Assembly: GCF_019649055.1 (NCBI RefSeq) | Contig: NW_026570226.1 | Location: forward strand, 1,860,001-1,924,000 | DNA: 64,000 nucleotides | Reading direction: 5' to 3' | DNA from: Paramacrobiotus metropolitanus | Taxonomy: Eukaryota; Tardigrada; Eutardigrada; Parachela; Macrobiotidae | Shown: one piece after another, positions 28,384-61,300 of the stretch | How positions within the stretch are numbered: position 1 is the stretch's first letter | How the letters are laid out: the number at the start of each line of letters is the position of its first letter | Notes under the pieces: generated by a model | What the model was told of the DNA's origin: nothing | What the model saw: only the letters and a program-made list of their open reading frames with translations | The model's database searches: none | Translations under genes and position numbers: made by a program

Positions 28384-28862
28384 AACATTTTAGTTTGACT
28401 CATCACGTCAAACTGTGCATATGTTGCACATATCGTTGTGGCGACCTCGGGGACCCGGATTCGAGGTCTCCAAGCACTTCAGTTCGATTCAGCACGTCCA
28501 ACTGTGCAATATAGTACATATCGTTGTGGCGACCTCGGGGACCCGGGTTCGAGGTCCCCAAGTACTTCAGTTCGACTTAGCGCGTCAAACTGTACAAATA
28601 CAGTACATATCGTTGTGGCGACCTCGGGGACCCGGGTTCGAGGTCTTCGAGTACTTCAGTTCGACTCAGCACGTCAAACTGTACATATATGGTACATATC
28701 GTGGTGGCGACCTCGGGGACCCGGGTTCGAGGTCCCCGAGTACTTCAGTTCGACTCAGCACGTCAAACTATACATATATGGTACATATCGTGGTGGCGAC
28801 CTCGGGGACCCGGGTTCGAGGTCCCCGAGTACTTCAGATCGACTCAGCACATCAAACTGTAT
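28384..28862. repeat. Tandem array, about five copies of an 88-89 bp unit
   Basis: The motif GCGACCTCGGGGACCCGG recurs at 28441, 28529, 28618, 28707 and 28796, giving spacings of 88, 89, 89 and 89 bases. Each unit also carries a TTCAGTTCGACTCAGCACGTC-like stretch and TACATATATGGTACATATCG-like sequence. In the last two copies CTCGGGGACC and GGTCCCCGAG form a perfect 10-bp hairpin around a 9-base loop; earlier copies differ in the right arm. The long open frames in all three forward frames are a by-product of the repeat, whose period is not a multiple of three. I regard this as a minisatellite, not a gene. Confidence 0.9.
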
Positions 28863-29901: not shown

Positions 29902-31534
29902 ATGGTTCGCTCCCTTTTCGTTGTTGCCGCCGTCCTCGTTGCCGGTTTGGCCGCCGTATCCAACGGTCAAGAGGTCACCTCGTGCGGTGTACCGGTGGTA
30001 GATCCGGTGCTGACCAGTGTCACCAAAGTGCGTGGTGGGGAAACGGCCAAGAAGGGTTCATGGCCGTGGCAAGTGCGCCTGGGAATGCGCGACTTCCTGG
30101 GAAGGACACAGTTCTTCTGCGGCGGAAGCATCATCGACAAAGACCACATCCTGACCGCAAGCCATTGCTTTGCTCAAGGGTAAGAACTGACAATTCCCCA
30201 AAAATAATTTTATTTTGCAGAATGTATGAATTATATATAATTCCGGTGTCATACTCAGCACTCACATATTTCCCATGTACAGTCTGTATATTTCTTTCAC
30301 CGGCTTTGAATCATATAATTAAGGAATTTTTTAAAAAACGTTGCCGATTACGGGTTCTTGTAAAACAGGCACTCAATCGTGCCTAGTAGTTATTCTATAG
30401 GGCTATCAACGGAAATCTTGTACCGGTACTTCTAATAAACCGAAGTTGTAAACCCTGGATAATTCTCATGAATAATTATATAATATTATTGTTGCTTATT
30501 ATAATTGCGCTTTCAAATCCTTAGCACTTTGTTCTTTTCATTAATGTTTGTAAATTTTTGCAGTACTCCGTTCGGTGCGACCTTTTTCGTTCGGGTTGGT
30601 GACCACCAAGACAACACTGTGGAAGTTGGCCAGAAAGACTATAACATCAAGACCATCCGCAAACATGCCCAGTTCGGTATGACCGCCACCGGTGTCAGCA
30701 ACGACATTGCCCTGCTGAAACTGTCCAGCTCCATTGCCTTCTCCGACAGCGTGTCGCCGGTGTGCCTGCCGGAAAAGAATTCAGACACTCTGCCTGGCCG
30801 CACCTGTGTGGTGACCGGGTGGGGCAGCACCGTCAACCAGTCCACGGGGATCTTCCGGGCGCCGGCCCAGCCCATCCTTCGACCCAGCACGGTCTTGAAA
30901 CAAGCCAAAATGTCTATTCTGGATCGTGACACCTGCAAGCAGGCCTGGAGACCGATTGTCATTCGGGATTACATGACCTGCACCTATGATGATGCCGATG
31001 AATGGGTGGCCAACGTTCATGGTGAACCGTGCCAGGTATGCTTATATACAAAGCGCTTATGATTAGCAGGATGCTTTTTAAGCAATATTCCATCATTTAG
31101 TAATTCTTGCATATGTTGTAATAGTAGAGCAGGAACTTTTGCAAAGTTAATTTATTATTATTACGATTCAAAAATTTAGATGTTTTATAAATATCTTTAT
31201 CGGTTATAGGGTGACAGTGGTGGCCCTATGGCTTGCAAAGTGGACGGAAGCTCTACTTGGAATGTCGAAGGTGTCGTCAGTTTTGGCGCTGGGTAAGAGA
31301 CGCTAAACAGTTTCAATTTTTAATTATATATAGATATACAGTATGTACCTAACGATAAGCTACCAAAGCTGTTTGTGAATTGTGATATATAGCGAATTAT
31401 ACCGTTATTGCTGGAGACAACTACTGTATAGCGGCGGTTTTTTTGTTGACAGGTGCGGTCAGCGAGGCCCGGCTGTTTTTACCAGAGTAGCCAGCTTCAT
31501 CGACTGGATCGACCAGCAAAAACTGACCCTTTAA
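29902..31534 (+). CDS. Secreted chymotrypsin-fold serine protease (protease 1)
   Basis: Exons: 29902-30179, 30564-31035, 31210-31292, 31453-31534 (304 aa). A signal peptide (MVRSLFVVAAVLVAGLAAVS) is followed by a short propeptide with Cys, an activation region KVRGG and GSWPWQV. The catalytic triad is present: His in LTASHCF, Asp in NDIALLKL and Ser in GDSGGP. Paired cysteines correspond to chymotrypsin 1-122, 42-58, 136-201, 168-182 and 191-220. The S1 pocket is odd: the residues before the catalytic Ser read GEPCQGDSGGP, placing Glu at 189 and Pro at 190 where trypsins have Asp and Ser or Ala, with Gly at 216 and Ala near 226. Substrate preference cannot be predicted safely. It should be secreted as a zymogen. 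It shares three intron positions with the protease at 39544, so the two are paralogues. Confidence 0.93.
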
Positions 31535-36249: not shown

Positions 36250-38388
36250 TCACCACTTTCCTTCTCGACAGTGTCCGCCTTCCATATACCACTGTTTAGC
36301 GTTAGGATACTCTTTGGCTTCAAATGCCGGGTCATGCAGTTTCTCGCATAACTCACACCAACCACTATTGGCGGCAGAATAACGTCCATGGGAAGATACC
36401 AGAACAGGATCGAAACGCCATTTCATGTACTCGTTATAGGCTGTGTCATTATTGTTCAGGTACTGCAGATAGTCCGCTAGCGCCTTCACGGAAGGGAAGT
36501 CATCAACATGGATGTACGAATTAGGTGGGTAAATTGTCATGTTGCCTCCTCCTAGCGCAACTGGGACGACGTAATTGGATAGGGCGTTGGTGAACTTCTC
36601 CGTTACATAATCCTGGCATATGCTGCAATTAATAGAGGAACGAAAACTAATTTGTGATATCATGCGCTTACCCGAATACTTAATGAAGTTATCAATTTAA
36701 TGCTCGTGAAACTGAAAAAATCAAACATGTGCCACAGTGTCACACACAATTTGACACAAATGTTACAAATGCGTATTTTACAATTGTACATCACTAACGT
36801 TTTGCTACACACTTGTGAGCAAGTTCAAGCATTTAACATTATACTCGTAATTCCTAAAAACACTTTCCAAAAGCCTTTCGTAAAGCAGTTTCAACGTAGT
36901 CTTGACAAGAAATCGTTTAATACGATAGGGGATTATAAAGAAAACAAAAATGCAAAACAAACATGCAGCTCTTATGCTGTAACCAACACCCAGTCGCAAT
37001 GTAATGTCAAACGCACCTGTTTTCAAAAGCAAGGTAAAATTTGTATTCCTTCTTCAGCAGTTGATTGCATGCCTGCTCATCGTTGCGCGAGCACTTTAAT
37101 GATCCACATTTTCCATACACATCCACATTCACATACTTTTGCAGTTGCTTGACGTAGTTTTCTCGCTTACTGTGCGTATGGCAATTACTAACATACCAAG
37201 CTACCAATTTATTTTTCCCTTCGGCAAAATTTTTTGGTGCCTGCTCCAGTGGAGCACTGTACATGTAATGTCCCAGGATATCAGAGTTCAGTCGGTATGT
37301 GTGTGTCATGTCGAAAAATCCCAGTGGAGTATCCGGGACACGGTTGTTTGGCAAGTTGGCTGGAGATTCGCCAATCAGGAAAACGTAATGTTGCTTGGAC
37401 CCACGAGGTCCAGGAAGAGCTTTCGGATCAACGTCCAAAGCGTGGAATATCACAGCATCAGCCTTATTGAGATTTCCTGCAAGTTCAAACAAATACCATT
37501 ACTTGCCAGTTCCCTGCTTATATCGACCGGAACATTCCTGAGCTTCCACATAATTCAATCAATACTAATTCAAATACAAATCATTGTCTCAAATATGTAC
37601 ATCGTAAAACAAAAATTTAAAACCAAATGAAAGCAAACATATCACGCCAGAGACTATAGCTTGTACGTAGAAAACTGTACGATAATGGAGTTTGAGCGTC
37701 GCATTGCGAAATGTTTTGCTACATACAAAACTTCAAAGCAGAACAAACTGTCGCGAGTGTCACCAGCCATAAAAACAAAGCTGTTTAAAGTAAAACTGAT
37801 TTTATCGTGCCATAAAAACAAAACAGATCTTAAAAATTTCATAAAATTCATGAAGCCTAAAGGCTTCAGTCAAAAATCAGTCAAAAATTTATTAATCTAC
37901 TGCAATTACGAGAATTATTCGTCAATGCCTTTTAATAAATTATAACTCTCAGTAAAAAATTAGCGCACACCTTTATCATTTGTAGCAGTACACTGTTTGA
38001 CAGGGCATCCGTCAAACAACTTGGATCCCATCGTCCCCCTGGAATCCGGAACACCAAAAAACTGCGTCCAAAACAACACTGTCTTTATGGCATCTGGATC
38101 AACGGGGAAGAGATTACTGGCTTGCGCCGCACTTTGTTTGCGACTGTTAATCTGCTGCTGAATATCCAGTACAAGAGGATCCACAGTACCTCCGGATATG
38201 AAAGTAGTAATGATTTTCCCCTGATCAAACCGGGAAGGGATATCCAGGAAATATATTAATGCAGCACACAGACAGATGGCTAATATTGTCCATCGCGTGA
38301 GGAACCGCGAACCCATCTTTCGCCGTGTGACAATGCTGGCATTATTGTTATGCTGCAGCGGTGCCATTGGAAGAACTTCAACAGTCAT
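36250..38388 (-). CDS. GT10 alpha-1,3-fucosyltransferase
   Basis: Exons in transcript order: 38388-37971, 37476-37017, 36622-36250 (416 aa). The N-terminus has a short basic cytoplasmic tail and one membrane segment (WTILAICLCAALIYFLDI, about residues 33-50), the type II signal anchor of Golgi glycosyltransferases. The GT10 catalytic region is clear: GESPANLP, THTYRLNSDI, GKCGS, YKFYLAFENS-ICQDYVTEKF across the second splice junction, VVPVALGG and PPNSYIHVDDFPS. These enzymes move fucose from GDP-fucose to GlcNAc in alpha-1,3 linkage, either on the N-glycan core or on Lewis-type antennae; the sequence does not tell me which. The usual FNWTMSYR motif reads FFDMTHTYR here. It ends CREGKW and stop, without a retention signal. 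Confidence 0.92.
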
Positions 38389-39543
38389 GATGATGATGGC
38401 CCGTCAAAACGTTCGGTAGCTTGGAAAACGGCGCTGCCAATCAGCGGAGCCGCATGTTGATAACCAGTCAGCTGTTATCGGTGATATTAGCACTTCGCAC
38501 CACATTAGATACGCATCAAACGTAGTGATAGCCGCGGGGAACACTTAACAGTACAGAAATACGAAGTAAACACTGTAAATGAAGAAGCTACGCCATCGCA
38601 GTGAGACACTTTCTGAACTTTCAGTTTTTCTGGAATGCTTCAGTGGATATGTACGTATTCACAAGCTGTAGTTTTAAACGTTTGGAGTTTTGCAATCCTC
38701 TAAACTTCAAGAATCTTTTGCAGGTATAAAGAAATGACAAAATCTGACTTTGAACAGCGCAGCAAAAAAACCAAGGCAAGCTTACGGTGCTGCTGACTGC
38801 CTGCTGCGGGCGAAAGACCAGAGTGTACTACTGTAATCAAAAGTTTAGCGATTTTCCGTTTTCGATACTTCGTATTTCTTCCTTGCTTGTGAACCCTTCT
38901 AGAAACAATTTGAGGCGTCACTCCTGGAAGCGTCAAATGTAAACCATTCTTCAAAAATACGGATTTTAGTTTGAGTAAATTCGTTAATTTGACAAATGCC
39001 ACCAACACGTACAACTCCAGTGAATTTTTGTGCTGTTCCAGTTTTTGTGCTGTGCTGCTTTTTGCGTTTTCCACATAAACTGTCGGCACAGCGGCCATGA
39101 ACATCGAATTTGTACGACGTACGATCAACTGGTACTTTAATCTGGTTGCTTTGAGGCTGACCTGAAGAACTCACCTGAAGAACTCGTTATTATACAATTA
39201 ATAGTACTCTAAGGTATTCGTACAATAAAATTAAATACCATTGCAACGAACACTGAAATTTCGCGCGCCGATACTTCGAATTTTAGTATGAAAATGCAGT
39301 TGATGCAAATTGGGAAATGTTCACTGCCCTCAGTGACCTGTTTGTCAGCATTTCGTGCCGCACCCGACGAGATAATCCAGCTGGCGCGGCACTTTTACAC
39401 TACAGGCAAGCAGTCCTTCGAATGCAAGCATGGCTTTTTGTTTATCCTCCTGTGTGGCAGTAAGGAAAGATCTGTGCGGTCATCCAGACTCCTCCTAATA
39501 CGTACATCACTTGCTGCACAAGATTTATAAGCCAGGGAATTCA
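38389..39543. other. Divergent intergenic region between fucosyltransferase and serine protease 2
   Basis: I support no gene here. Open frames on both strands (minus 38899-39174, about 91 codons; plus 39288-39530, 80 codons) match no family known to me and have no coherent exon partners. The region probably carries the promoters of both flanking genes. Confidence 0.45.
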
Positions 39544-42482
39544 ATGCCCCGCTGCGTCATGTGGCCGTACGGAAATCTTCTCTTCGTTGTGGCATTCGTT
39601 TATCTAGCTATTACCGGTACTAGCAAGCCTGCAATCAATCGAAATCCGCCAACTGGTGTAATTTTTATTTTATGGACGATTGTGTTATATGTAGATTTAT
39701 TCGTTTTGCAGTTTTCGGTCAATCCACCGAACTTCCGGTGACCCATCCTAACTGTGGCAAACAAGCCATTGCTCCGTCGGTACTTTCGGATAGCCGCATT
39801 CTTGGTAAAATTACATTTTTAAACATTTTGTGTTAATTAACATTGACGTAATTATTAATCTGATTTAGGAGGTGATGATGCTGTGCCTGGTAGTTGGCCG
39901 TGGCAGGTGAGAATTGGAGAAAGAGTGACCGGCGGTGTTTCATTTTTCTGTGGAGGAGCTATTTACAATAAACAGTTTATTCTGACTGCTGGACACTGCT
40001 TCCCTGGGAGGTTGGTTAATACACTGGCTACACTGCTGCATGTTCCTTATGAGTTATGAGCGATTGCGGTATTGCTCCAAATGAAAATCCTTTTTATCGC
40101 AATTTTTGTAAATTTGCAGTAGCCCATCATATCCGAAAAAGTATGTCGTACGTGTGGGAGAGCACAACATGTCGGTGTTTGAATCTTTCGAAAGAGACTA
40201 CGGTGTGCAGCAAATCTATCGTCATCCGAATTATACATATCGCGGTGCGCCCGCCAATGACCTGGCGCTGGTGCGCCTGACGTATCCGTTGGTGTTCAAC
40301 GAGAGAATCTCCAGTGTCTGCCTTCCGACGCCCATGAATGATCCAGAGCCAGGAGAGGAATGTGTTGTAACAGGTTAAATTTAAAATTGCTTACGCGTAA
40401 GTCATTCAAATTTTTGCTTTGGAATACATTTAAGGATGGGGACGATTTTTGGATCAATATTCGTATTCTACATCTGCGCCCTCTACAACCACGGAAACAA
40501 CTGTAAAGACCACAGCGGATGATGGTTTTGATCCCGAGGATGATCCCACTCCACCTTCGGCAGCGGCAAACAACGGTGCCGCTGGTGCAAATGAAATCCA
40601 GAATCCTAACTTGCAAGCCTCGCTTTCGAATCAGCATTCTGTTATCACTCCGACAACAATGACTACTACAAGAAGCACGACCGCCTCTCCGACTACCACC
40701 ACTGTAAAGACAAGCACAACAACAACCAGGTGACCACTGTTGGCACACTAACTGTAGATGCAGTGCATGGAAAGTCAATGCAACAATGGTTTCATTGATG
40801 TAGTAGGTGAAATATACTTAAACTTTGCTAATTCAGGCTTGCAGTCATGGAATTTCATTCTTACTAGTACTGACCATGAGTAAATTTTAAAACTGACGCG
40901 CTAATGCTAATGAGGTTTTGCTTTAATTTAAGCACTTTGCCAACCTCGCCGCCAAAGACAACTACCACTACGACCGCCATAAAAACAACTCCTACAACGT
41001 CCAAACCACCAACTACCCATCCGACAACCAAGCCAGCCGGTGGGGTCCGCGATATAATGACGACCACAATCTCTACAAAACCGTCCACCACTTCCACAGC
41101 TGCGGTGACCTCTACCATATCCGTGACCCCACCCGCTTCTACAACCACTGCCACTCTTCCCACGACAACTCCGACGACTACAACAACCTCAACTGCAACG
41201 ACAACAACTACTACCACCACGCGGTCCACGCCCACCACTACCACCACCACGCCCACGACGACAACAACTGCAACTACGACTTCTACGACCACAGCCTCCA
41301 CGAGTACTACAACGGAAACCACTAGCACACCGACAACGCAAACGGCAACAAACGCAGCGGAATCCGCCTCGCAGACCCAAACGGCAGCGCCGGCAAAAGA
41401 CGAACCAGCAACTACGGAAACCACAATAACTACTACAACGCACACGAGTACTACGAAACGAACGACGAGAAGGGCACCGTCGTTAAGCGATTTGCTATTG
41501 CCGTTCCTTGAGGCGGTAATAACGTCGGATCTGGATGAAAAGGAAGTTTACTCCGTGGTTACGTCACCCTCAGCAGAGCATTCGGTAAAACCCGTGAAAC
41601 CGGCGCATCATGTTGTACCACATGGACACCGCATGGTTGTCAATCCCCGGCAAGCCGCTACCGTGCCACCGTACCAGTATAGCTCGGTTAATGTCCACAG
41701 TGAAGCGTTGAAACAGGGTTTGGTCAACATTTTCGACCGGTGAGCGACAAATATGGTTACATATAAGTTTCGAAATGACAAGCAGAGAGAATTTGCGATA
41801 TTAAAATTTATGTTGGAAAATATCAAAGTTGTGCCGACTGAGCCAGACAGTGTTTTTTTCCTATAATGGTTGCTATTGCAGAACAAACTGTTCGGTGTAC
41901 TGGAAAAGCCTAATCCGGGAAACGATGCTATGCAGTATGCCTCCTGCTGCGGATATAGAGCCTTGCAAAGTAAAGGAATCACATTTCAGTTTAAATTTGA
42001 ATTCCGTTAGTTTTGTTCGAAATAATTTAATAACCGTACTAAACAACTTTTTTTTGCCAAAACTATCATGTAGTATAATTTACTTTGTGTTTCGTAGGGT
42101 GACAGCGGTGGCCCGTTGGTATGTCGAAGGGGAGATGGATCGGAAAGGGTCTGGTCAGTTGAAGGCATTGTCAGTTTTGGAGCGGGGTAAGAATTGAATA
42201 CGTATTAAATAAATATCATTTTTTTTCGGATAACTGCTTTGTTTTGCATACAGGTGTGGAGCTAAAAGACCATCGGTGTACACTCGAGTATCCAACTACG
42301 TTCACTGGATAGAGCGGGTCACAAGAAGTGCTGCAAAACCTCAATATTCGCTCAACAATCTCTTGAGCGACCTGTTTGGCTACTCCAAAGCAGCTATACA
42401 CGACGCACCGGAACCAATCCGGGAACCAAATACCATTCAGCCAGATCTTTTGCTAACGAACTCGACAATGCGCCGACGTTGA
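39544..42482 (+). CDS. Secreted serine protease with mucin-like insert in the catalytic domain (protease 2)
   Basis: Exons: 39544-39655, 39712-39804, 39869-40010, 40120-40373, 40435-40729, 40933-41739, 41882-41969, 42098-42186, 42254-42482 (702 aa). A hydrophobic signal segment follows the start MPRCVMWPYG. The activation site reads RILGG, then SWPWQV. Triad residues are His in LTAGHCF, Asp in NDLALVRL and Ser in GDSGGP. After VVTGWG, at the position of the autolysis loop, two exons insert more than 300 residues, mostly Thr with Ser, Pro and Ala, before the fold resumes with ALKQGLVNIFDRTNC. The insert is likely heavily O-glycosylated. S1 residue 189 is Glu and 190 is Pro (IEPCKGDSGG), as in protease 1. 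A tail of about 50 residues follows the last helix. The total is roughly double that of a simple trypsin. All phases agree across the nine exons. Confidence 0.92.
40435..41739 (+). other. Mucin-like Thr-rich domain within protease 2
   Basis: Two exons (40435-40729 and 40933-41739) encode runs of Thr interspersed with Ser, Pro, Ala and Val, plus less repetitive segments with acidic residues. On the reverse strand the same DNA opens long Val/Gly/Arg-rich frames, which are artefacts of the ACN-rich codons. A mixture of ACA, ACC, ACG and ACT codons argues against simple recent slippage of one triplet. Confidence 0.9.
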
Positions 42483-43410: not shown

Positions 43411-46364
<2,954 letters not shown>

Positions 46365-49395: not shown

Positions 49396-52300
49396 GTAGA
49401 ATATTCATGTCGACTTCCCTAAAATTCCTGTTAGATAAAATTTTGTTGTTTGTAGAAAAAATGGCAACCGGCATTCGCTAATGCCTCCAACGAATGTGAA
49501 CGTGGGTGGCTTACTGTAATTCTTTAGCGTGTAATTCTTTAGGGTAAAGATTGATCGAGCCTAGTATTGATTTGTTTGTTGTGGTAATCTTGAAAATTCT
49601 TTAGCGTGTAACTGCCACGGTCACTCCAGCGAATGCCAGTATGACCCAGAAATAGACGAGAAACATCTAAGTTTAGACATCCATGGGAACTACGAGGGCG
49701 GTGGAGTGTGTCGTAACTGCCATGTATGGATTTTCTCAATATATCGGATGTGCGATTAATTAATGTCCAGTTGAATATTTTGTTTGTGCCTTCATGTAGG
49801 ATAATACCGAGGGAATAAACTGCGAGAAATGTCGTTCGGGCTTTTTCCGTCCGTATGGAAAGGATAAATCGGACCGCGACGCGTGCCAGGGTATGTGGGT
49901 GCCGATAACGATGTGGTCAATGTAGTGTAGTGTTGTGCCAGATCCATTTTTCCGGAATTCTGAAACCGCTGAATTTCCGCATTTCATCAAAAGAATACGC
50001 TTCTAAAGCAATCACAAAAGTAGAATCTGATACAATTTTTGTAAATAAAGGGGTTTTATTAATACTTTTCTTTTGAAATCAAAAGTGGTTAATGTTAATT
50101 TGCCTTGAAAATTTTGTAGTTTGTCGCTGCAATCCCCGGTTCACAACCGGAAACTGCGCGGAAGGCACCGGTATCTGCGAGTGCAAGCCGAATTACACGG
50201 GCACCAACTGTGATCGCTGCAATCTGGGCTACTACGATCCTCCGGAATGCAAACCCTGCGACTGCAACTACAACGGAACGATGAACCAAGTGTGTAATGT
50301 GGGACGCGGCGCGTGTCCGTGCAAACCGAACTACACCGGTCCCAAGTGTGATCAGTGTGCTGACACTTACTACGACTTCCCCAACTGCACGTGTACGTAT
50401 ACATTGTTTCGTCGATATATACAGTAGATTAATCGTTGATCCTAGTACGTCTGGCTTTACTGTTTGTTTACTTTCCACTGGCTTTCTGAGTTTTACTTGT
50501 TTGTATTTTCATGTACAGAATATACCAAAAATAAAATTATTACATATTCTATAAAATTATTCCCACTTTCCGGCATAGTTGTTTCTCCATTTGAGAGGTT
50601 AATTTTTTTTCAAAACTTCAGCCTGCGATTGTGATGCCCGGGGATCCCCTAATCCCGTCTGCGACAAAACAACCGGACAGTGTGCCTGTGAAAACAGTTT
50701 TGGCGGGCTCCGTTGTGATCAATGCGGTGATGGATATTACGGTCATCCGCGGTGCAGCTGTAAGTACAAGTTCTGCTGGCCGGTGTTTTTCAGCGTGATT
50801 GCGTCACCGTAATATTATGTTTATTACCAGTGTGCGACTGTGATCCGGCTGGAACGGTGAAAGAAATCTGCCAAAAGGACACCGGTGTGTGCATCTGCAA
50901 ACCGGGGTACGATGGTGTTCGGTGTGATCGTGCTGCGCCAGGTTTCTATGGCTATCCGGAAGTCAAAAGTAAATCATTTCGAACGATAAATTTTACAAGC
51001 GAATAATTATGCCAATGATTTAACTTATCTTTCGTTAGAATGCGACTGTCATGCCGCCGGATCGATCAACGATATCTGCGACAGCAGCACGGGACGGTGC
51101 CCGTGCAAAAATAATTTTTCTGGACGCGAGTGTGACCTTTGCGCTACCGGCTACTACAAATTTCCCGAATGTTTAGGTAGGTTATTTGAACAAAAAAACC
51201 ACACTTTCATTTGACAGTTGCTAACCAAGTGGTGCAGCTAAAGTTCGACTTATGAAAAACACTAATTAAATTTGCAGACTGCAAATGTGATCCCTACGGC
51301 ACCATCGGAACCACCTGCGACAATCGTGGCCAGTGTCAGTGCAAGAAAAACTTTGTCGGCAAAACCTGCAATCAATGCAATGAAGGATTCTACAATTATC
51401 CACTGTGCGAAGGCTGCAACTGTAATCCAGCCGGATTAATCACGTCATTTGGTGGATGCGGAAAAGTCCAGGGTGAATTTTACTCAAAGGTCACATAGAA
51501 ATACATGCTGTAAGGAAACGGTATTGTAGGAGAACTGTGCCAGTGTAAAGAGCGCGTTACCGGTCGCATCTGCGACCAGTGCAAACCCGGCTACTGGGGC
51601 CTGGACATCTATAATCCCTTAGCCTGCGACGAATGCACTTGTCACGCCGCCGGTACCATCTCGGCGTTAGGCGTGTGTAATCCGCGCAATGGTCGTTGTC
51701 CCTGCAAAACCAATGTGGAATCGCGCACGTGCGACAAATGCCGCGACGGCTTTTACAGTCTGGACGCTCACCATCTGCACGGCTGTGTGGCGTGTGGATG
51801 TGACGTGGGCGGGGCTACTACGGGCATCTGCGAAAAGAACACCGGACAGTGTCAGTGCCGACCGCGTATTAACGGGAAAACTTGCAGTCAGGTGTTAAAG
51901 ATGCATTATTTCCCCACGTTACATCATTTGAAATTCGAAGCGGAAGACGGACACGCCAAGGAAAACGCTCCGGTGCAGTACGAATTCAACGTAAATGATT
52001 ATCCTGGATACTCGTGGCGAGGATACGCGGTGATGTCGACCAAACAGCCGGAGATTTATGTGCCCATTCAGATACGGAAACCATCACTGTATCGCTTGCT
52101 GATTCAGTATGTCAACCTGGCTAATGCGTCGGCTAAGGCGGAGGTTATCGTCTCGCCGGAAATGAGCGGGGAGATTGATCAGAAGAGCACGGTGGAGTTT
52201 CTGCCGACTAAAGAAGGGAAGTATGTGGGTGTGGGCGAAGGGACAAGTGTCAATACGTTCGTTCTGCATCCGGGACACTGGGAGGTGGTGCTGAAAACGG

Positions 52301-55300
52301 CGCAACCGGTGCTGATTGACTACATTGTGCTTCTACCGCAGGCGTACTATGAAGCCACCATTCTGCAGCAGAATACACACGCTCCGTGTTTGTACGAGGG
52401 GAATCAGTCGTCGTGCCAGAACTATACGTATCCGGATTTCGATAATTTTGTGCAAATAGATCCATTGGATCCAACCCATCCGGTATAGCAAACCAAACTG
52501 ATATTTCTTAGCAATTTGTTTAATAACTACATGCATCTGTAAAATAACTTGTAACTAATTTTCATAAACTGAAAGTATTTAAAATAAAGTGGCAACAGCT
52601 AACCGTAAATACGTACTCGTAGTTGAGTAAAAACTCGTACGCACAGTTTCTTACGTATACATACTGCATTAATTAAGTACCTTTAGCCTGGTTACCAACT
52701 TACCGGTGACTTATAGTTTTGGTTTATTATTTACAGTTTCTGTTTATTTTCTATGGTTATATTATCTATTCGCCGGTTTTTAAGGTGTATTACAAGAAAA
52801 ACGGAGATAATCGCAAACCACAAGTGGATGAATCGCGGCCGGGAATGCGTGGAGTGTTGATCGACGAAAGCCAGCCCCAGCTAACCTTAGAACCGGAAAT
52901 TCTCCCCAAAGAACGCCATCACCTGATCCTGTCGTACTTCACCGCCGACACCAACGCGGCTGACCGCTTAAACGTATCCATTCAGATGCGCAACGATGTA
53001 GCCCCCGGAGAGTACCGGGTGGAGATCTACGACTGCCCATATGCACAGGGCTGCCGCAGCGTCGTAGTGGATGAACGGGGTCACATGGCCACCTTCGCCC
53101 CGACGGATGGCTATGGGAAAATAGTCCTGGTGCCGGTTAGTCGCCGCGACGGTGCCCATCCGGATTTCGTCCTAACCGGGATTACTGCGGTACCGCGTGA
53201 CCAGTGGAGTGTGGATTATGTACGCCCGAAGAGTGCGTGTGTCGTGGTGGGTGATAAGTGCGAAGTGATGGAATATATGCCGATTCCCGAGTCGGAAATG
53301 GTTGAAGCCGAGACGGATTTGCAGGTTGGTCATTGTTTATATGTGTAGTTAATTTTAAAGAAACCAGTGGTGAGCATTGGTGCAATTGTGGAGGTTAATT
53401 TGTCTTAACGAAGTAATGGGTTTATTTAAATTTTTAATGCATAACAACAAATTAATATCAGCAGATTTGGACTAACTGAATATAAATTTAATTAAATGAA
53501 TTTAAATTTAACGTTACACGAGATGTTTTCATAGGCAAATTTTCAAGTAGGTAATTTATAGATAGAACGTGAAACGCACTGCTGCCGTTCTAATGATGAC
53601 TCTAAGTTCTTATAATGAGTAATAACTTGCTCAGCTGAGATATTATAATTAACCGACAACACCTGATCTCTGAACAGTAACATTGAAATTCTGAATATAT
53701 ATATATCGTAGTGTGATGGCGAATACCTCTACCAGCTTATAATTGTAGATTTGCGTCGTGCAATAGAAGTGCGTTTACAGTAATTAAACAATTTTTCATA
53801 TCTCGTAGTGAGTTTTTGTGGATTTTCTTTTCTTATCCATATAACATTGTTGAAAAAGCTTGCAAATAGCATGATTCGAGTGTTCCAATAAAATTTACTC
53901 CCCTAGTGGTGCGAAATATGAAAGTGCGTTCACGAGTGTGATCCTTAAGAATAAGAACTTATTTACAAAGTAATAGCCACTCTGCAATCATACTGTTTTC
54001 ATTGCTATGCAGGCCAACCTGATGCGGCCGGAAATCCCGGCATTACCAGCCAAAGTACAGACGGCCCTGTTATACCAATCCAACCAGTCCCTCTACCTGC
54101 GCGGCAGCAGTGCGCGATCCGGTAACCACGTTTTCTTGGTACACTACTACCAGCCCCACGGAGCCGGCGCCCAGCTAGAGGCGGCGGTCCAGGGTGTGGA
54201 AGCCACGCCGGCTGTTCTGGAGACCAGTTTCTGTCCGTCCATTAGTGGATGCCGGGCAGTGCTGCGTCCCGCCGAAGGGCAGCAAAACAGTTTCCGATTG
54301 GGAAAAGATTACTCGGTAACCATTAAGGGTAGCGACGGTCATGAAGTGTACATTGACTACGTCGTGGCACTGCCGGCGGATAAGTACCGGGAGCAGCTTT
54401 TACAAGAACCGTCGCGTGACCTTTCGGCACGCTTCATCGGGGAATGCGCGGATCGTTACTTTGATATTGACCCCAAGACGCAGGGATTTTGCCGGCAAGC
54501 GACATTTTCCCTGGTGTCGGGATTTAACAGCGAGGCGGTTTCGTGCGATTGTAATTTGGATGGGTCGGTGTCCATGCAGTGTGAAGAAATGGGTGGACAG
54601 TGTCAGTGTCGAGCGAATGTTATCGGGAGAAAAGTGAGTGCGATGTATGTTTAAACACAAGAATCGTAGTCGAGTGGCTAATGCAGACACCGGAAGCTGG
54701 GTAAATGCTTTATCTGGCTTTATGGTAAATGAATAACTGGATATTCTTATTAATTTTTTTGTTTTTTAAGTGCACGAGATGTAAATCGGGATTCTGGGGT
54801 TTTCCGGCGTGCAAGCAGTGCAATTGCCCTTTCAACTCCATATGTGACCCGGTTAGTGGGGCCTGCATTTGTCCACCGAAAGTGCAGGGAGACCGGTGCG
54901 ATACATGTATGCCAAGAACCTTCGGCTTCCATGCGATCACCGGATGTCAGGATTGTAATTGTAATCCTTACGGAAGTAACGGCTCTTTAAGCTGTGACCA
55001 GGACAACGGAAATTGCTACTGCAAGAAAAATGTTGCCGGCCGGAAATGCGACCACTGTCTCACTGGGTAGCTAAAACTTTTACCAGAAGAAGTTGCACAT
55101 TAAAACTATGCTTAAAACTTTAAACAAGGGTATTTAACTATTTTATGCCAATTATATATAATTTATTTTATATCTTTATATAATTTATAATTTGTTTTAT
55201 ATAGTTTATTTTATTTTATATCAGGTATTCCGTTTTGTTCCTTTGCTTCGCACGACGCAACCTGCATATCATTTTATAGGTATTATTCGTTTCCACAATG

Positions 55301-58300
55301 CCAAGCTTGCCATTACTGTGACATACGTGGCGCCACCGACGCCGTTTGCGATCAGACTAGCGGTCAGTGTCTGTGCAAGGAAAACGTCGCCGGTCCCCGT
55401 TGTGACGTGTGCAAAGCGTCCACATTCCTTCTGGACACCAAAAATCCCCAAGGTTGCACCAAATGCTTCTGTTTCGGTATTACACATCAATGCCACAGTT
55501 CATCCTACCTGCGCTATCTCATCACCAGCATTGGTCAGGCCAATTGGACCACCGTCCCATCGCTGCCCATCGCCGTGACCAGCACCGGCGTGGAAGCTAC
55601 GCCCACCGCCAACATCACCGGCGAGATCTATTGGGTGGCACCGGAAGAATTCCTGGGCAACCGCGTGACATCATATGGCGGGAATCTGACATATTCTGTT
55701 ATTGTCAGTGCGGATGATAGTACTGGGTCCATGTCGCCGGATGTTGTGTTAAAGGGGAAGAATATGACGCTGGTGCATTTTCATGACACTCAACCGTCGG
55801 TAGGGGTGCATCACGAAGTGGACGTGGAGATTGTGGAGAAGAATTTCGAGCATGAGTCGGGGAATAAACCCACGCGTGATCAGTTTATGATGCTGTTAGC
55901 CGGTTTGGAGGAGATCAGAATTAAGGCCGGCTATTTCAGCAAACCGAAATTACTGACACTGAATTATGCTTCGATTCACGGTATGTTATCATATGTATGA
56001 AAAATTGTTAAAATCTTGTTCGACGTATTGTATTCGATATTTTATTTATTCTATCTGTAGTTAATTTTTTGTGTACATACAAGTACGTTAATTAAAAGCT
56101 TTAAGAAAGCTGCTATATCTTGCCCTTTCTTCAGATTGGTACGTTATTGACAAATAAGTGATTTTAAAAAACGATTTGAAATACGTGAAATTGTTGGGAA
56201 AAAAAGCCGGAATTATAAGTTTCCATAACAGGTGCCCTTTCCCCTTCGGCTGCTTTTGCCGCTGGACTGGTTCTGAACGAGACCGCGCAACAAGTTGAAG
56301 AATGCCGCTGCCCTCCGGGTTATGCGGGGCCCTCCTGTGAGGAATGCGCGCCCCAACATTTCCGCAGTAAGATCGGTCCGTATCTCGGTATGTGTCTGCC
56401 GTGTGACTGTAATAATCACGCTGAGCGTTGTGACGTGGAGACCGGTCAGTGTATCAACTGCCTGCACAATACCACCGGCGAGCGCTGTGAACGCTGTGCG
56501 GAAGGATACCATGGGGATGCCACGCGCGGTAGTCCGTATGATTGTATGATTTGTGCATGCCCCTTGCCAATCGAAGGCAACAATTTCGCGACGACTTGCG
56601 AGGTTGCGCCGGATGGACTGGATATTTACTGTACATGTCGCGAGGGATATGTGGGCGAACGGTGTCAGCATTGTGCGCCGGGATATTTTGGACGGCCGGA
56701 TGCGCCAGGTGAGACTCGCACAGCCGTAAAAAATATAAATAATTTATAGTTTCAGTATAAAATTATTTTTTCAGAAAGCTGTATAATTTGCTACTTACAA
56801 TAACCCAAATAACTCAATTACAAATAAAAGTATTAGGGAAGATTTATTTGACATGACCGTTTTTAACGCAGGTGGATACTGTCAGCCCTGCCAGTGTCAC
56901 GATAACATTGATCCACTGGATCCCGAGAGTTGTGATCGTGTGACCGGAGAGTGCCGAAAATGTTTGAAAAACACCACTGGTGACCAGTGCCAGACATGTG
57001 CCACTGATTTTTATGGAGATCCCACCAAAGGACTATGTCAGGTGTGCGACTGTGAGCCGTATGGAACGGAAGAATGCAACACGACGGATGGATCGTGCAA
57101 GTGTTGGCCCAATGTGGTCGGTCCACGTTGTGACAAATGCGCACCCAACCACTGGAATTTTGAGTCTGGAAAGGGTTGTTCATCCTGTTATTGCGGAGTT
57201 GGCAGCAAGATGCAGCAGTGCAACCTGGAAACCGGACAGTGCTTGTGCCAACCGGGAGCCGCTGGACAACGGTAAACAAAAACGCACATTATCAGAAAAA
57301 TGAAAGTATTTTTTTGTAACTCAAGATTATCCTTTTTTTTTGGTAATTTGGTGATGGCTAAGTAACGTCGTTGTCCAGGATAATTTGGATGCATAAAACA
57401 ATTTATCTCTTTTGCAAAATAAGTGGCCGCCAAAGTTTATCATGCATGACCTTTCTTTTATACTTAGATGTGATCAATGCGCGCACGGATATTGGAATCT
57501 CACTGCTGCCGGCTGTCAGCGCTGTGCTTGTGCCACCAAATATTCCGTTGGTGAGATGTGCGACCAGCAGACCGGGCACTGCTCTTGTCTTCCGGGAGTG
57601 ACCGGAAGTGACTGCGATCGTTGCAAAGCGCGCCACGTCCTCAAAGAAAACTATGGCTGTATTAGCTGCGAAGATCAGTACTGTGTCGTCACTCTGCTCG
57701 ACGATTTCGACACCCTGCACAACCAAGTGGGCGTGGCCAGCAGCGACTTCGAGCGCGTCTCGGCCACCCATTTTGCCATACGCCGACAGAACCACATCAA
57801 CGAGACCATCGGGAATCTGACGCAAGCCGTGAATTTCTTGCAACTGAGTGGCACACCCAGTCTTCTCAATGCCGTGCGGGCCGATCTCGAGAAGTATGAA
57901 AAGGTCATCGATCGTCAGTCGAAGACAGGTGGCGACCATAATAAGAACGCACAGGAGCGACTAAATGGAGCGGATAAGGCGCGGGAGGATTTGGTGGACA
58001 TCTGGCGGCAGCTGGTGCAAGCCAAGATCAATGCGTCAGAATTTCGGACACAGATGATCGCGCTGGAGGATTATCTGCGACTGGGACCGGGAAGGGTCAC
58101 GGAAAGCGCGCATATCGCCGAGCCGATTCTGAATCAGCTGAAAAATAGGAAATTTGATGATTATTTGACCAACACCACGAAAGAGAAAGAAGCAGCAGAG
58201 GCCTTGAGAGATAACGTCAAAACGTTCCAGGTAAGATATGGACGGACAAATATGCACATAAAATATATTTCCGAAGGGCGCGTACAATGTACAATATAAT

Positions 58301-61300
58301 GCGAAATCACTTGATTTCTCAGTCCCAGTGCATACAGTTACAGAAAATATAAAGTAGTATGGAGGTTGCAACCCTCTCGAAATATCCGTTATTAATTCGT
58401 TATTAATTTGGATTCGTTATTAATTTGAACTAATTTTCGTTCTAGACGAAATTCAATGAAACCGATAAAAAGACGCAAACAGTGCTGGCCAATGTGACGC
58501 AGTATCAATCGAAAATGCGCGATCTGGAGAAATTATCTATCAACGCTACCGAGACCGCCGCTACCACCCAGGACAAGCTTGACCGGATCAAAGAAAACAT
58601 TACCGACAACATCAACGCCTTGACCCAGTTGGAAATTCTCATCCGCGATACCATCACCAATTCGTCCACGAAGAAGACCGGCGCCCAGATGTTCTTAACG
58701 GAAGCGGAAACGGCCTTTGCCGGCTTGGATGGACTAAGCACCCGCGTCAAAACACAAGCCGATGACCTCGAACAACAAAACCGGCAGATGCGTCTGGATC
58801 ATCAAGAAGCTCGGCGCACACTGTCCGACACCCGAGGACATGTGTACATGCTGGAAAACGAAGCTAACCGCGTGGATAATTTGTTTAATCCGACACGCAA
58901 CGCCGCAGCCGACGGCAAGAAAGCGGCGAATGTGTACGACGATATTGTGGACGATGTGGAAGAGGGTAAAGCCGCGCTGGCCAATGCGACCATCTTCGCC
59001 ACGGAGATCACCGGCATCACCAGTACACTGGAAGTAGCTGTGCCGGAATCGAAGAGTGCGAGTGAGACCCTGAATCGCCAGGCGGATCAGGCTAAAATAG
59101 ATGCGCTGAAACTACGCGGACAAGTAAGATAAAAAATAATAATATAGGTACTCGATAGATGCTTTAACGATACTTTAAAGGTCACCATCTTGTATTTATC
59201 CTGTTTTTAAAATTTTCGAGATAACTATCTTTTATATATGTTTTCGAGTTTTGCCGATGAAAAATTGAGTAATTGTTTTTTGGCACATATTTTGTTGTTA
59301 ACTTCAAATTTTTTGCCAGGTGGAGAGTAATCAAAACAAAGGTGCGGCCATTCGCGAAGACCATGTAAAAACCGAGCAGGTCATTGCGGCTGTTCGATTG
59401 GGGATGGGGCAATTACCGAAAGGTGACAGTCGTGGTCAGGCGAATACAATCAAAGCCAGCGCGGTTGCGGGCATCGACAAGGCCAATGAGGCGATGCGGC
59501 GAGCCGACGAGATTATCGCGAATCTGGCCGGGACGGCGGTGGGACAGCAAAATAAGCCCAGCGGTTCGGCACAGGATGTGGTCATTGTCCAGAGTGCAGC
59601 GGTCCAGATTCCCCAGGATATTAATCGGATCACGCAGCAGATCGGGTCAGTGGAGACGATGGTGAACCAGAATGATGCAAAGGTCAACGCGCTGGGCAAC
59701 AAATTGGCTGAATTAAAGGAGAAGATTGAACTGACACGAAGTCTCGCCAGCAGAGTACGTTGCAAATGTGAAACGTTACACAAAAATCGTATCTGTACAT
59801 AGTTACATATTACGCATATAATTTTTGTGCGGGGTACTGGTTCGCTCTTGCCAGCGCATTAAGCTACATCGGACAGATTCCAACGCATTTAGCCACTACT
59901 ACCGATTCCTTTAGGTTTATCGGTATTTCGAAATTTTGAAAATTTAATAGAGTCATTTATGTATTTTACGATAGATTAAAGTTGGATCGCAGTTTACTCG
60001 GGAAAACATTCTGCAAGTGAAGAATCCGCGCGATTTATCATCGCGCGCTGCCACCTACACTCATGCCAGCTTGTTCTTCAAAACTGTGGAAAGGGACGGT
60101 TTGCTCTTCTATCTCGGCAACGAAATGGGCACATCGCGACGCGTTAAACGCGACTTCACTTTTGTCACCGTAAGAAACGCAAATGTATTAATTAGGTGGA
60201 CTTATTATGTTAAATCATTTCAGCGAGATCACATTTTGCATGTGCTTCATGGTATGATGGAAATACGTACGTTATGTTGACGCTTTGTGTAGGATGACTA
60301 CATGGCCTTGCAAATCATGGAGGGCTTTGTGGAGTTAGTTTACGATCTGGGATCAGGTGCAGCAACAATCCGCGTGGACGATCGCTACGTGGCCGATAAC
60401 CAGTGGTACCAGGCCATTGTGGAGAGGTACGTAATCAAAGTAAAAAGAGTAAGTAATAAAGAAAAATAAGGTAATTAATAATAATAAACGTCATGGATGT
60501 TGGTTCCGAAAAAAAAGACATTTGGTGAACTGGCAAACATTAGCAGGAAAAAGTGAAATTACATGTCAAAATGCTTGTAGTTCGGATGGCACAAAAACTT
60601 CCAGTTTTCACTGTTTTCGCAAAATTTATTTTTTACAGAATTGGTAAAACAGCCACGGTTCTCGTGCGCTACCCGCGACAGCAGAACGGTAAACCGGAAG
60701 GGTACGCGCGCAAGAGCGGCACTTCGCCGGGTGCCAACAGTGTATTCAATCTGAACCAGGCCAACTCCACGTTCTTCGTGGGCGGTGTGCCACTGAACTA
60801 CCGCTTACAAATTCCGGTACGGAATAAACGCTTTGCCGGCTACATCGAGCAGGTGGCGTTCGATGAGGATCCGGTGGGGCTGTGGAATATGGGCAATATG
60901 ACCTTTGACACAGAGCGGCCCACCACAGTACCGCAGTTGGCGGGCGGGCGGAATCAGCTGATTGAATCGAAGGGCCAGGTGGAGGGTGGCATCAAATTAG
61001 ACGGGACGGGTTACGCCGTCTACGCCATGGAAGCCCGCACCGACGTGGCCAGCCAGACGTCTTGTATTGTAGCGATGAAGACGTTCGCTAAGGATGGGCT
61101 TTTGTTTTATTTAGCGGGCGATGGAAATGTAAGGAATTTTTCTGGTGCAAATATTGCATTTGCTCTATTATTAACGCTTTGTTTTTTAATTTGTTTTTTT
61201 TAATAAATCTAAGTAAATTTTTCAGGAGGATTTTCTGGCTCTGGAACTGCGAGATGGCTTCGTGGTTTTCAAATATAATCTCGGATCTGGTGTTGTGGAG

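What the first reader, a model, noticed from the sequence alone, without database searches (positions are those of the whole stretch)
40435..41739. Mucin-like domain inserted in the autolysis loop of a serine protease
In protease 2 the chymotrypsin fold is split after VVTGWG by more than 300 residues of Thr-rich sequence carried on two dedicated exons, and it resumes with ALKQGLVNIFDRTNC and an intact GDSGGP. Mucin-like regions in extracellular proteases normally sit outside the catalytic domain. An O-glycosylated brush emerging from the autolysis loop, next to the active site, could restrict substrates or inhibitors, or anchor the enzyme in mucus or cuticle. The neighbouring paralogue has only a modestly enlarged loop here.
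Basis: partly seen in the sequence, partly recalled or inferred. Interest (0 to 1): 0.75.

Follow-up and report, generated by a model that had tools for sequence, protein, structure and literature searches.

The report
Protease with mucin-like autolysis loop
A chymotrypsin-like protease gene carries about 350 extra amino acids, many of them threonine and perhaps sugar-coated, in a surface loop near its active site where related enzymes have a short loop, which could act as a built-in shield or tether.

Summary
A nine-exon gene (39544-42482, +) reads as an intact 702-residue S1 (chymotrypsin-fold) protease with GT-AG introns, the catalytic triad and all ten chymotrypsin cysteines. Between WG (141-142) and ALKQG it carries 353 residues (T120, S39, P35, no Cys). 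Alignment to bovine chymotrypsinogen stops at residue 144 and resumes at 146: the autolysis loop. WG-to-Cys168 spacing is 367, against 24-36 in 24 of 25 loops read in one exon elsewhere in this genome, 92 in the other, and 36 in the window paralogue. Equal use of Thr codons, near-absence of tandem repeats and one open frame argue for long-kept coding sequence. Corrections: the exons are not 'dedicated' (they also carry W141-G142 and strand 155-167; skipping both shifts the frame), and only about 203 residues are mucin-like; a 78-residue non-mucin segment follows a KRTTRR site. In two other protease-like genes here Thr tracts lie outside the fold. Most likely role: an O-glycosylated spacer at an inhibitor-contacting loop that shields or localises the enzyme, perhaps after cleavage. 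No RNA, orthologue, glycan or structure data were available.

The parts
39544..39655 (+). exon 1: start codon, hydrophobic leader (signal peptide by eye), aa 1-37
   Evidence: gene model
39712..39804 (+). exon 2: propeptide with the Cys1 equivalent (C52) and activation site R66|ILGG
39869..40010 (+). exon 3: start of the catalytic domain to AGHC (H111 = His57)
40120..40373 (+). exon 4: D163 = Asp102, C183 (122), C197 (136), ends in VVTG
40435..40729 (+). exon 5: W141-G142, linker, acidic spacer and first part of the Thr-rich core
40933..41739 (+). exon 6: most of the Thr-rich core, KRTTRR basic site, 78-residue non-mucin segment, strand ALKQGLVNIFDR
41882..41969 (+). exon 7: C571 (168), C585 (182), EPCK (Glu594 at position 189, C596 = 191 by alignment)
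42098..42186 (+). exon 8: GDSGGP (S600 = Ser195), C606 (201)
42254..42482 (+). exon 9: C628 (220), end of the catalytic domain, C-terminal tail, stop
29902..31534 (+). paralogous S1 protease (exons 29902-30179, 30564-31035, 31210-31292, 31453-31534; 304 aa) with a 36-residue WG-to-C168 loop and no intron in it

Best explanation
The gene encodes a secreted S1A (chymotrypsin-fold) zymogen whose autolysis loop (between residues 144 and 146) holds about 342 more residues than chymotrypsin: an acidic spacer, a Thr-rich core of about 203 residues that would be densely O-glycosylated, a basic site and a 78-residue non-mucin segment. The fold tolerates it because this loop lies on the surface and its two ends are held by the C136-C201 and C168-C182 bonds. 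The extended brush then keeps bulky partners (serpin-type inhibitors, large substrates) off and/or holds the enzyme in mucus or matrix while small substrates still enter. Shown: gene structure by sequence, placement by alignment, composition, intact catalytic and cysteine residues. Inferred: expression, secretion, glycosylation, shielding or tethering.
For: Intact frame with eight GT-AG introns; retention of intron 4, 5 or 6 gives an immediate stop. Two-piece alignment to chymotrypsinogen at 144/146 and all ten of its cysteines. Thr codons used equally, neighbouring identical Thr codons 15 of 65 against 16.3 expected, one short tandem array in the insert. xCN:AxN 98:44 in the insert, 39:38 and 28:34 elsewhere. 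Loop as an inhibitor contact: Arg150 region of FXa/FIXa with antithrombin; glycans engineered into the factor X loop alter activation, procoagulant activity and antithrombin inhibition (PMC10216295, passages, citing Bonde et al., not read); streptokinase gamma-domain at the plasmin autolysis region blocks alpha2-antiplasmin (PMC7374754, passages, citing other work not read).
Against: No transcript, protein or glycan evidence. No orthologue could be sought (no eukaryote collection at hand), so conservation of the insert is unknown. PMC7374754 (passages) classes the autolysis loop of plasmin as distant from the active site and reports loop mutants as not active in one passage and as strongly raising the inhibitor's IC50 in another, so tolerance is not assured. 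The codon test assumes that P, A and S codons derive from Thr codons. Glu at position 189 is unusual (recalled), so activity itself is uncertain.
Confidence: 0.45

Rival explanations
1. The insert is a processing module: the enzyme is cut after the basic KRTTRR site (aa 474-479) or by autolysis in the loop, as alpha-chymotrypsin is cut at 146-149. The product is a disulphide-linked enzyme whose B chain ends in a mucin-like tail that tethers it, while the 78-residue segment becomes the N-terminus of the C chain.
For: KR and RR pairs at 474 and 478 sit at the end of the Thr core; C136 and C201 equivalents are present, so the halves would stay joined. Another gene of this genome (L024/L081) has an enlarged loop with basic runs, RRHRRNKRGAPRNKR. 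Cleavage of alpha-chymotrypsin in this loop is recalled textbook knowledge.
Against: No processing data; the site is short and may be covered by glycans. Partly compatible with the best explanation.
Confidence: 0.3
2. Neutral growth: a permissive surface loop accumulated low-complexity Thr-rich sequence with introns and no special function.
For: The loop is also enlarged in another gene here (92 residues, L024). Introns 4, 5 and 6 of this gene surround or lie in the insert; the window paralogue, which shares three other introns in place and phase, has none there.
Against: Thr codons show random third bases with first and second bases kept, and non-Thr positions lean to P/A/S, which a neutrally decaying tract would not; no sign of recent slippage.
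Confidence: 0.2
3. The gene model is wrong: alternative splice sites within exons 5-6 normally remove most of the insert, or the gene is not expressed.
For: No RNA evidence exists here; skipping exon 6 alone would keep the frame.
Against: Skipping exon 6 loses strand 155-167; skipping exon 5 or 5+6 shifts the frame. Codon evidence for coding.
Confidence: 0.05

Closest known systems
Bovine chymotrypsinogen A / alpha-chymotrypsin (S1A)
   Same: Best match among solved structures (E 4.6e-42); same cysteine set and triad; the same loop can be cut without loss of the fold (recalled)
   Different: Loop of ordinary length; no mucin-like insert
Factor Xa/IXa and plasmin autolysis loops
   Same: The loop is an inhibitor contact (passages); glycans put into it by design change function (second-hand)
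   Different: Short loops; glycans engineered, not a natural mucin-like insert
Protease-like genes with Thr-rich tracts outside the catalytic fold, in this genome L032 (C-terminal tail; its motif reads GDGGGP, so possibly inactive) and L045 (N-terminal, exons not spliced)
   Same: S1 fold joined to a Thr-rich tract
   Different: Tract lies outside the fold
L024/L081 modular protease of the same genome (MAM, LDL-receptor-A, Trypsin)
   Same: Large autolysis-loop insertion, 92 residues WG to C168; groups with this gene in one tree, support 94/84, on a very long branch
   Different: Insert is Arg/Lys-rich, not Thr-rich, and lies in one exon

Membership tests
S1A chymotrypsin-fold protease (PF00089) | Profile match over curated cut-off | tested here: met
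   176.3 bits against 20.6, two stretches
S1A chymotrypsin-fold protease (PF00089) | His57/Asp102/Ser195, IxGG start and GDSGGP | tested here: met
   H111, D163, S600, R66|ILGG, GDSGGP
S1A chymotrypsin-fold protease (PF00089) | Chymotrypsin disulphides 1-122, 42-58, 136-201, 168-182, 191-220 | tested here: met
   All ten cysteines at matching places (positions, alignment); the bonds themselves are inferred
S1A chymotrypsin-fold protease (PF00089) | Proteolytic activity | not testable with these tools
   Glu at 189 by alignment, specificity unknown
Mucin-like (PTS) domain | High Thr/Ser/Pro, no Cys | tested here: met
   T+S+P 194 of 353; core 145 of 203; Cys 0
Mucin-like (PTS) domain | Dense O-glycosylation | not testable with these tools
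   No predictor or glycan data
Classical mucin | Tandem repeats (VNTR) | tested here: not met
   At score 50 only one array in the insert, two copies of 21 bases
CLIP-domain protease | Six-cysteine CLIP domain before the catalytic domain | tested here: not met
   Before the activation site only C4 (leader) and C52; no Pfam match but Trypsin

The most novel reading that the evidence does not exclude
A natural protease that carries its own glycan shield: a mucin brush grown out of the autolysis loop acts as a steric gate that admits small substrates but keeps serpin-type inhibitors out, a genetically encoded counterpart of glyco-engineered coagulation factors.
Probability: 0.2. Interest if true: 0.75.

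Novelty: new variant of a known kind. Interest (0 to 1): 0.5.

Why it matters
If expressed as read, it shows that one of the most studied protein folds can take a mucin-sized insert in a loop that governs inhibitor recognition. If the insert acts as a shield or tether, it is a natural model for glyco-engineering of protease loops and a testable case of how new segments enter folds through tolerant loops.

Tried and rejected
Reading the two halves as separate genes was rejected: together they make one complete domain with each cysteine once, and there is no stop between them. An origin of the non-mucin part of the insert from another gene found no support: a 79-residue piece matched only itself in the genome at E up to 1 and nothing among solved structures at E up to 1. 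Reading the Thr tract as an antisense or non-coding repeat was rejected.

A shared origin of this loop and that of L024 was left open: the tree joined them at 94/84, but L024 is a very long branch and the inserts cannot be aligned. Whether introns at the loop are special to this gene was also left open: in other genes the matches break near the loop, and those exon ends were not compared.

Literature: searched open-licence PMC papers; two searches returned none, and in the listings of the rest no title or abstract start described a mucin-like insert in an autolysis loop. Only two papers were opened, passages only (PMC10216295, PMC7374754).

No structure was predicted: by its stated rule the tool takes proteins read letter for letter from the DNA, and this one is spliced.

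Full report
What is there. The region holds a nine-exon gene on the + strand, 39544-42482, whose exons join to a 702-residue protein with every intron GT-AG and no stop. It has a hydrophobic leader (by eye), a short propeptide with one cysteine, an activation site R66|ILGG, and a catalytic domain that matches Pfam Trypsin in two stretches (E 1.1e-51). Against solved structures the best match is bovine chymotrypsinogen (E 4.6e-42): residues 52-207 align to chymotrypsinogen 1-144 and residues 548-649 to 146-241. By that alignment H111, D163 and S600 are the triad, and the ten cysteines from C52 to C628 stand at the places of the five chymotrypsin bonds.

The insert. Between WG and ALKQG lie 353 residues, T 120, S 39, P 35, A 33, no cysteine, no N-glycan sequon. 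It is not uniform: a Thr-containing linker, an acidic low-Thr stretch (about 229-270), a Thr-rich core (276-478, 105 Thr of 203, T+S+P 145 of 203), basic pairs KR at 474 and RR at 478, and then a 78-residue non-mucin segment with a hydrophobic run and a His/Pro-rich part. A 79-residue piece covering that segment matched only itself in the genome and nothing among solved structures, both at E up to 1.

Is it real coding sequence? Openness alone is weak, as Thr-rich DNA has few stops, but in exon 6 the Thr frame has 0 stops, the other two + frames 6 and 12 and the three - frames 2, 24 and 5. The four Thr codons are used 33/30/29/28; neighbouring Thr pairs share a codon in 15 of 65, 16.3 expected; the only tandem array found in the insert is two copies of 21 bases. 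Codons one base from ACN are xCN (P, A or S) 98 times and AxN 44 times in the insert (p 7e-6; core alone 52:24, p 0.002), against 39:38 and 28:34 in the parts before and after it. This fits a protein long kept Thr/Pro/Ser/Ala-rich rather than a young repeat or a decaying one, with the caveat that P, A and S codons need not derive from Thr codons. Retention of intron 4, 5 or 6 gives a stop at once.

Correction on exons. The two exons are not dedicated to the mucin part: exon 5 starts with the G-W-G of VTGWG and exon 6 ends with the strand ALKQGLVNIFDR. Skipping exon 5, or 5 and 6, shifts the frame; skipping exon 6 alone keeps the frame but loses that strand. Simple exon skipping therefore cannot yield a normal-loop protease, though alternative splice sites inside the exons could.

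How unusual is it in this genome? Pfam Trypsin gave 162 matches, 150 listed, and only 150 of 449 candidates were scored, so counts are lower bounds. In 42 of the 150 listed matches the match runs across the loop (profile 120 to 165), and the surplus over the profile length is at most 63 residues, introns included. For loops read in one exon, 25 of the 81 fetched loci were given to the count; 24 of these 25 gave 25 loops (L058 gave none): WG-to-C168 spacing 24-27 in 22, 33 and 36 in one each, and 92 in one, L024. The window paralogue has 36 and this gene 367. The 60 loci were scanned on the gene strand for Ser/Thr/Pro-rich segments: 16 of 60 passed a loose threshold. I followed the two with the longest Thr runs, L032 and L045, and in both the tract lies outside the fold, C-terminal and N-terminal respectively, L045 without splicing the gene. 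The other 14 were read as off-frame translations by eye, not each checked. Of the 21 loci L061-L081, 4 gave such a segment, all in a frame other than the protease frame. So this is the only Thr-rich autolysis-loop insert among those examined, and loop enlargement occurred in at least one other gene. Many other genes have matches that break near the loop; these loops were not spliced, so a further case could have been missed.

Ancestry. The window paralogue, 304 residues, has introns of phase 2, 0 and 2 at the places of introns 3, 7 and 8 of this gene, which have the same phases: after His57, before GDSGGP and before Cys220. It has none in the loop. A tree of 26 rows puts this gene with L024 (94/84), but L024 is a very long branch in a gene with MAM and LDL-receptor-A modules, so a common origin of the two enlarged loops is unproven.

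How it most likely works. Passages of PMC10216295 say that the autolysis loop contacts the antithrombin exosite in factors Xa and IXa, and report that glycans engineered into the factor X loop change activation, procoagulant activity and antithrombin inhibition (the original, Bonde et al., was not read). Passages of PMC7374754 say that streptokinase at this region of plasmin blocks alpha2-antiplasmin; they also class the loop as distant from the active site, and describe loop mutants as inactive in one place and as raising the inhibitor's IC50 in another. A long glycosylated brush at this point would by the same logic keep inhibitors or large substrates off, or tether the enzyme. Cleavage at the basic site would give a disulphide-held enzyme like alpha-chymotrypsin (recalled). 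All functional steps are inferred.

Novelty. The parts are ordinary, an S1 protease and a PTS-rich stretch; their topology is not. In the listings I saw no described case, within open-licence PMC papers only and by titles and abstract starts. I rate it a new variant of a known kind.

Noticed in passing
36253-38403 (-) and 43411-44765 (+): Both neighbours of the protease look like sugar-pathway genes: a GT10 fucosyltransferase (Pfam E 3.1e-35) and an NAD-dependent epimerase (E 2.6e-10; UDP-galactose-4-epimerase-like by eye). Probably coincidence.
   Followed up: partly
41882-42186 (aa 594-600) and paralogue 31010-31230: Both window proteases have Glu-Pro at positions 189-190 (EPCK and EPCQ before GDSGGP) where trypsin has Asp-Ser (recalled): an unusual specificity pocket.
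   Followed up: no
L081 (G000:C208:114800-119800), loop in L024: A modular protease (MAM, LDL-receptor-A and Trypsin matches) with an Arg/Lys-rich autolysis loop, 92 residues WG to Cys168, holding several basic runs.
   Followed up: partly
28392-28861: Tandem array of an 89-base unit, 5.3 copies.
   Followed up: no
51514-61200 (+): Laminin-type gene: laminin EGF and B domain matches, and laminin G matches below the curated cut-off.
   Followed up: no
aa 482-493 (about 41480-41520) and C-terminal tail (about 42340-42390) of the protease: The non-mucin segment (SLSDLLLPFLEA) and the C-terminal tail (SLNNLLSDLFGY) look alike by eye; may be similar amphipathic helices or chance.
   Followed up: no
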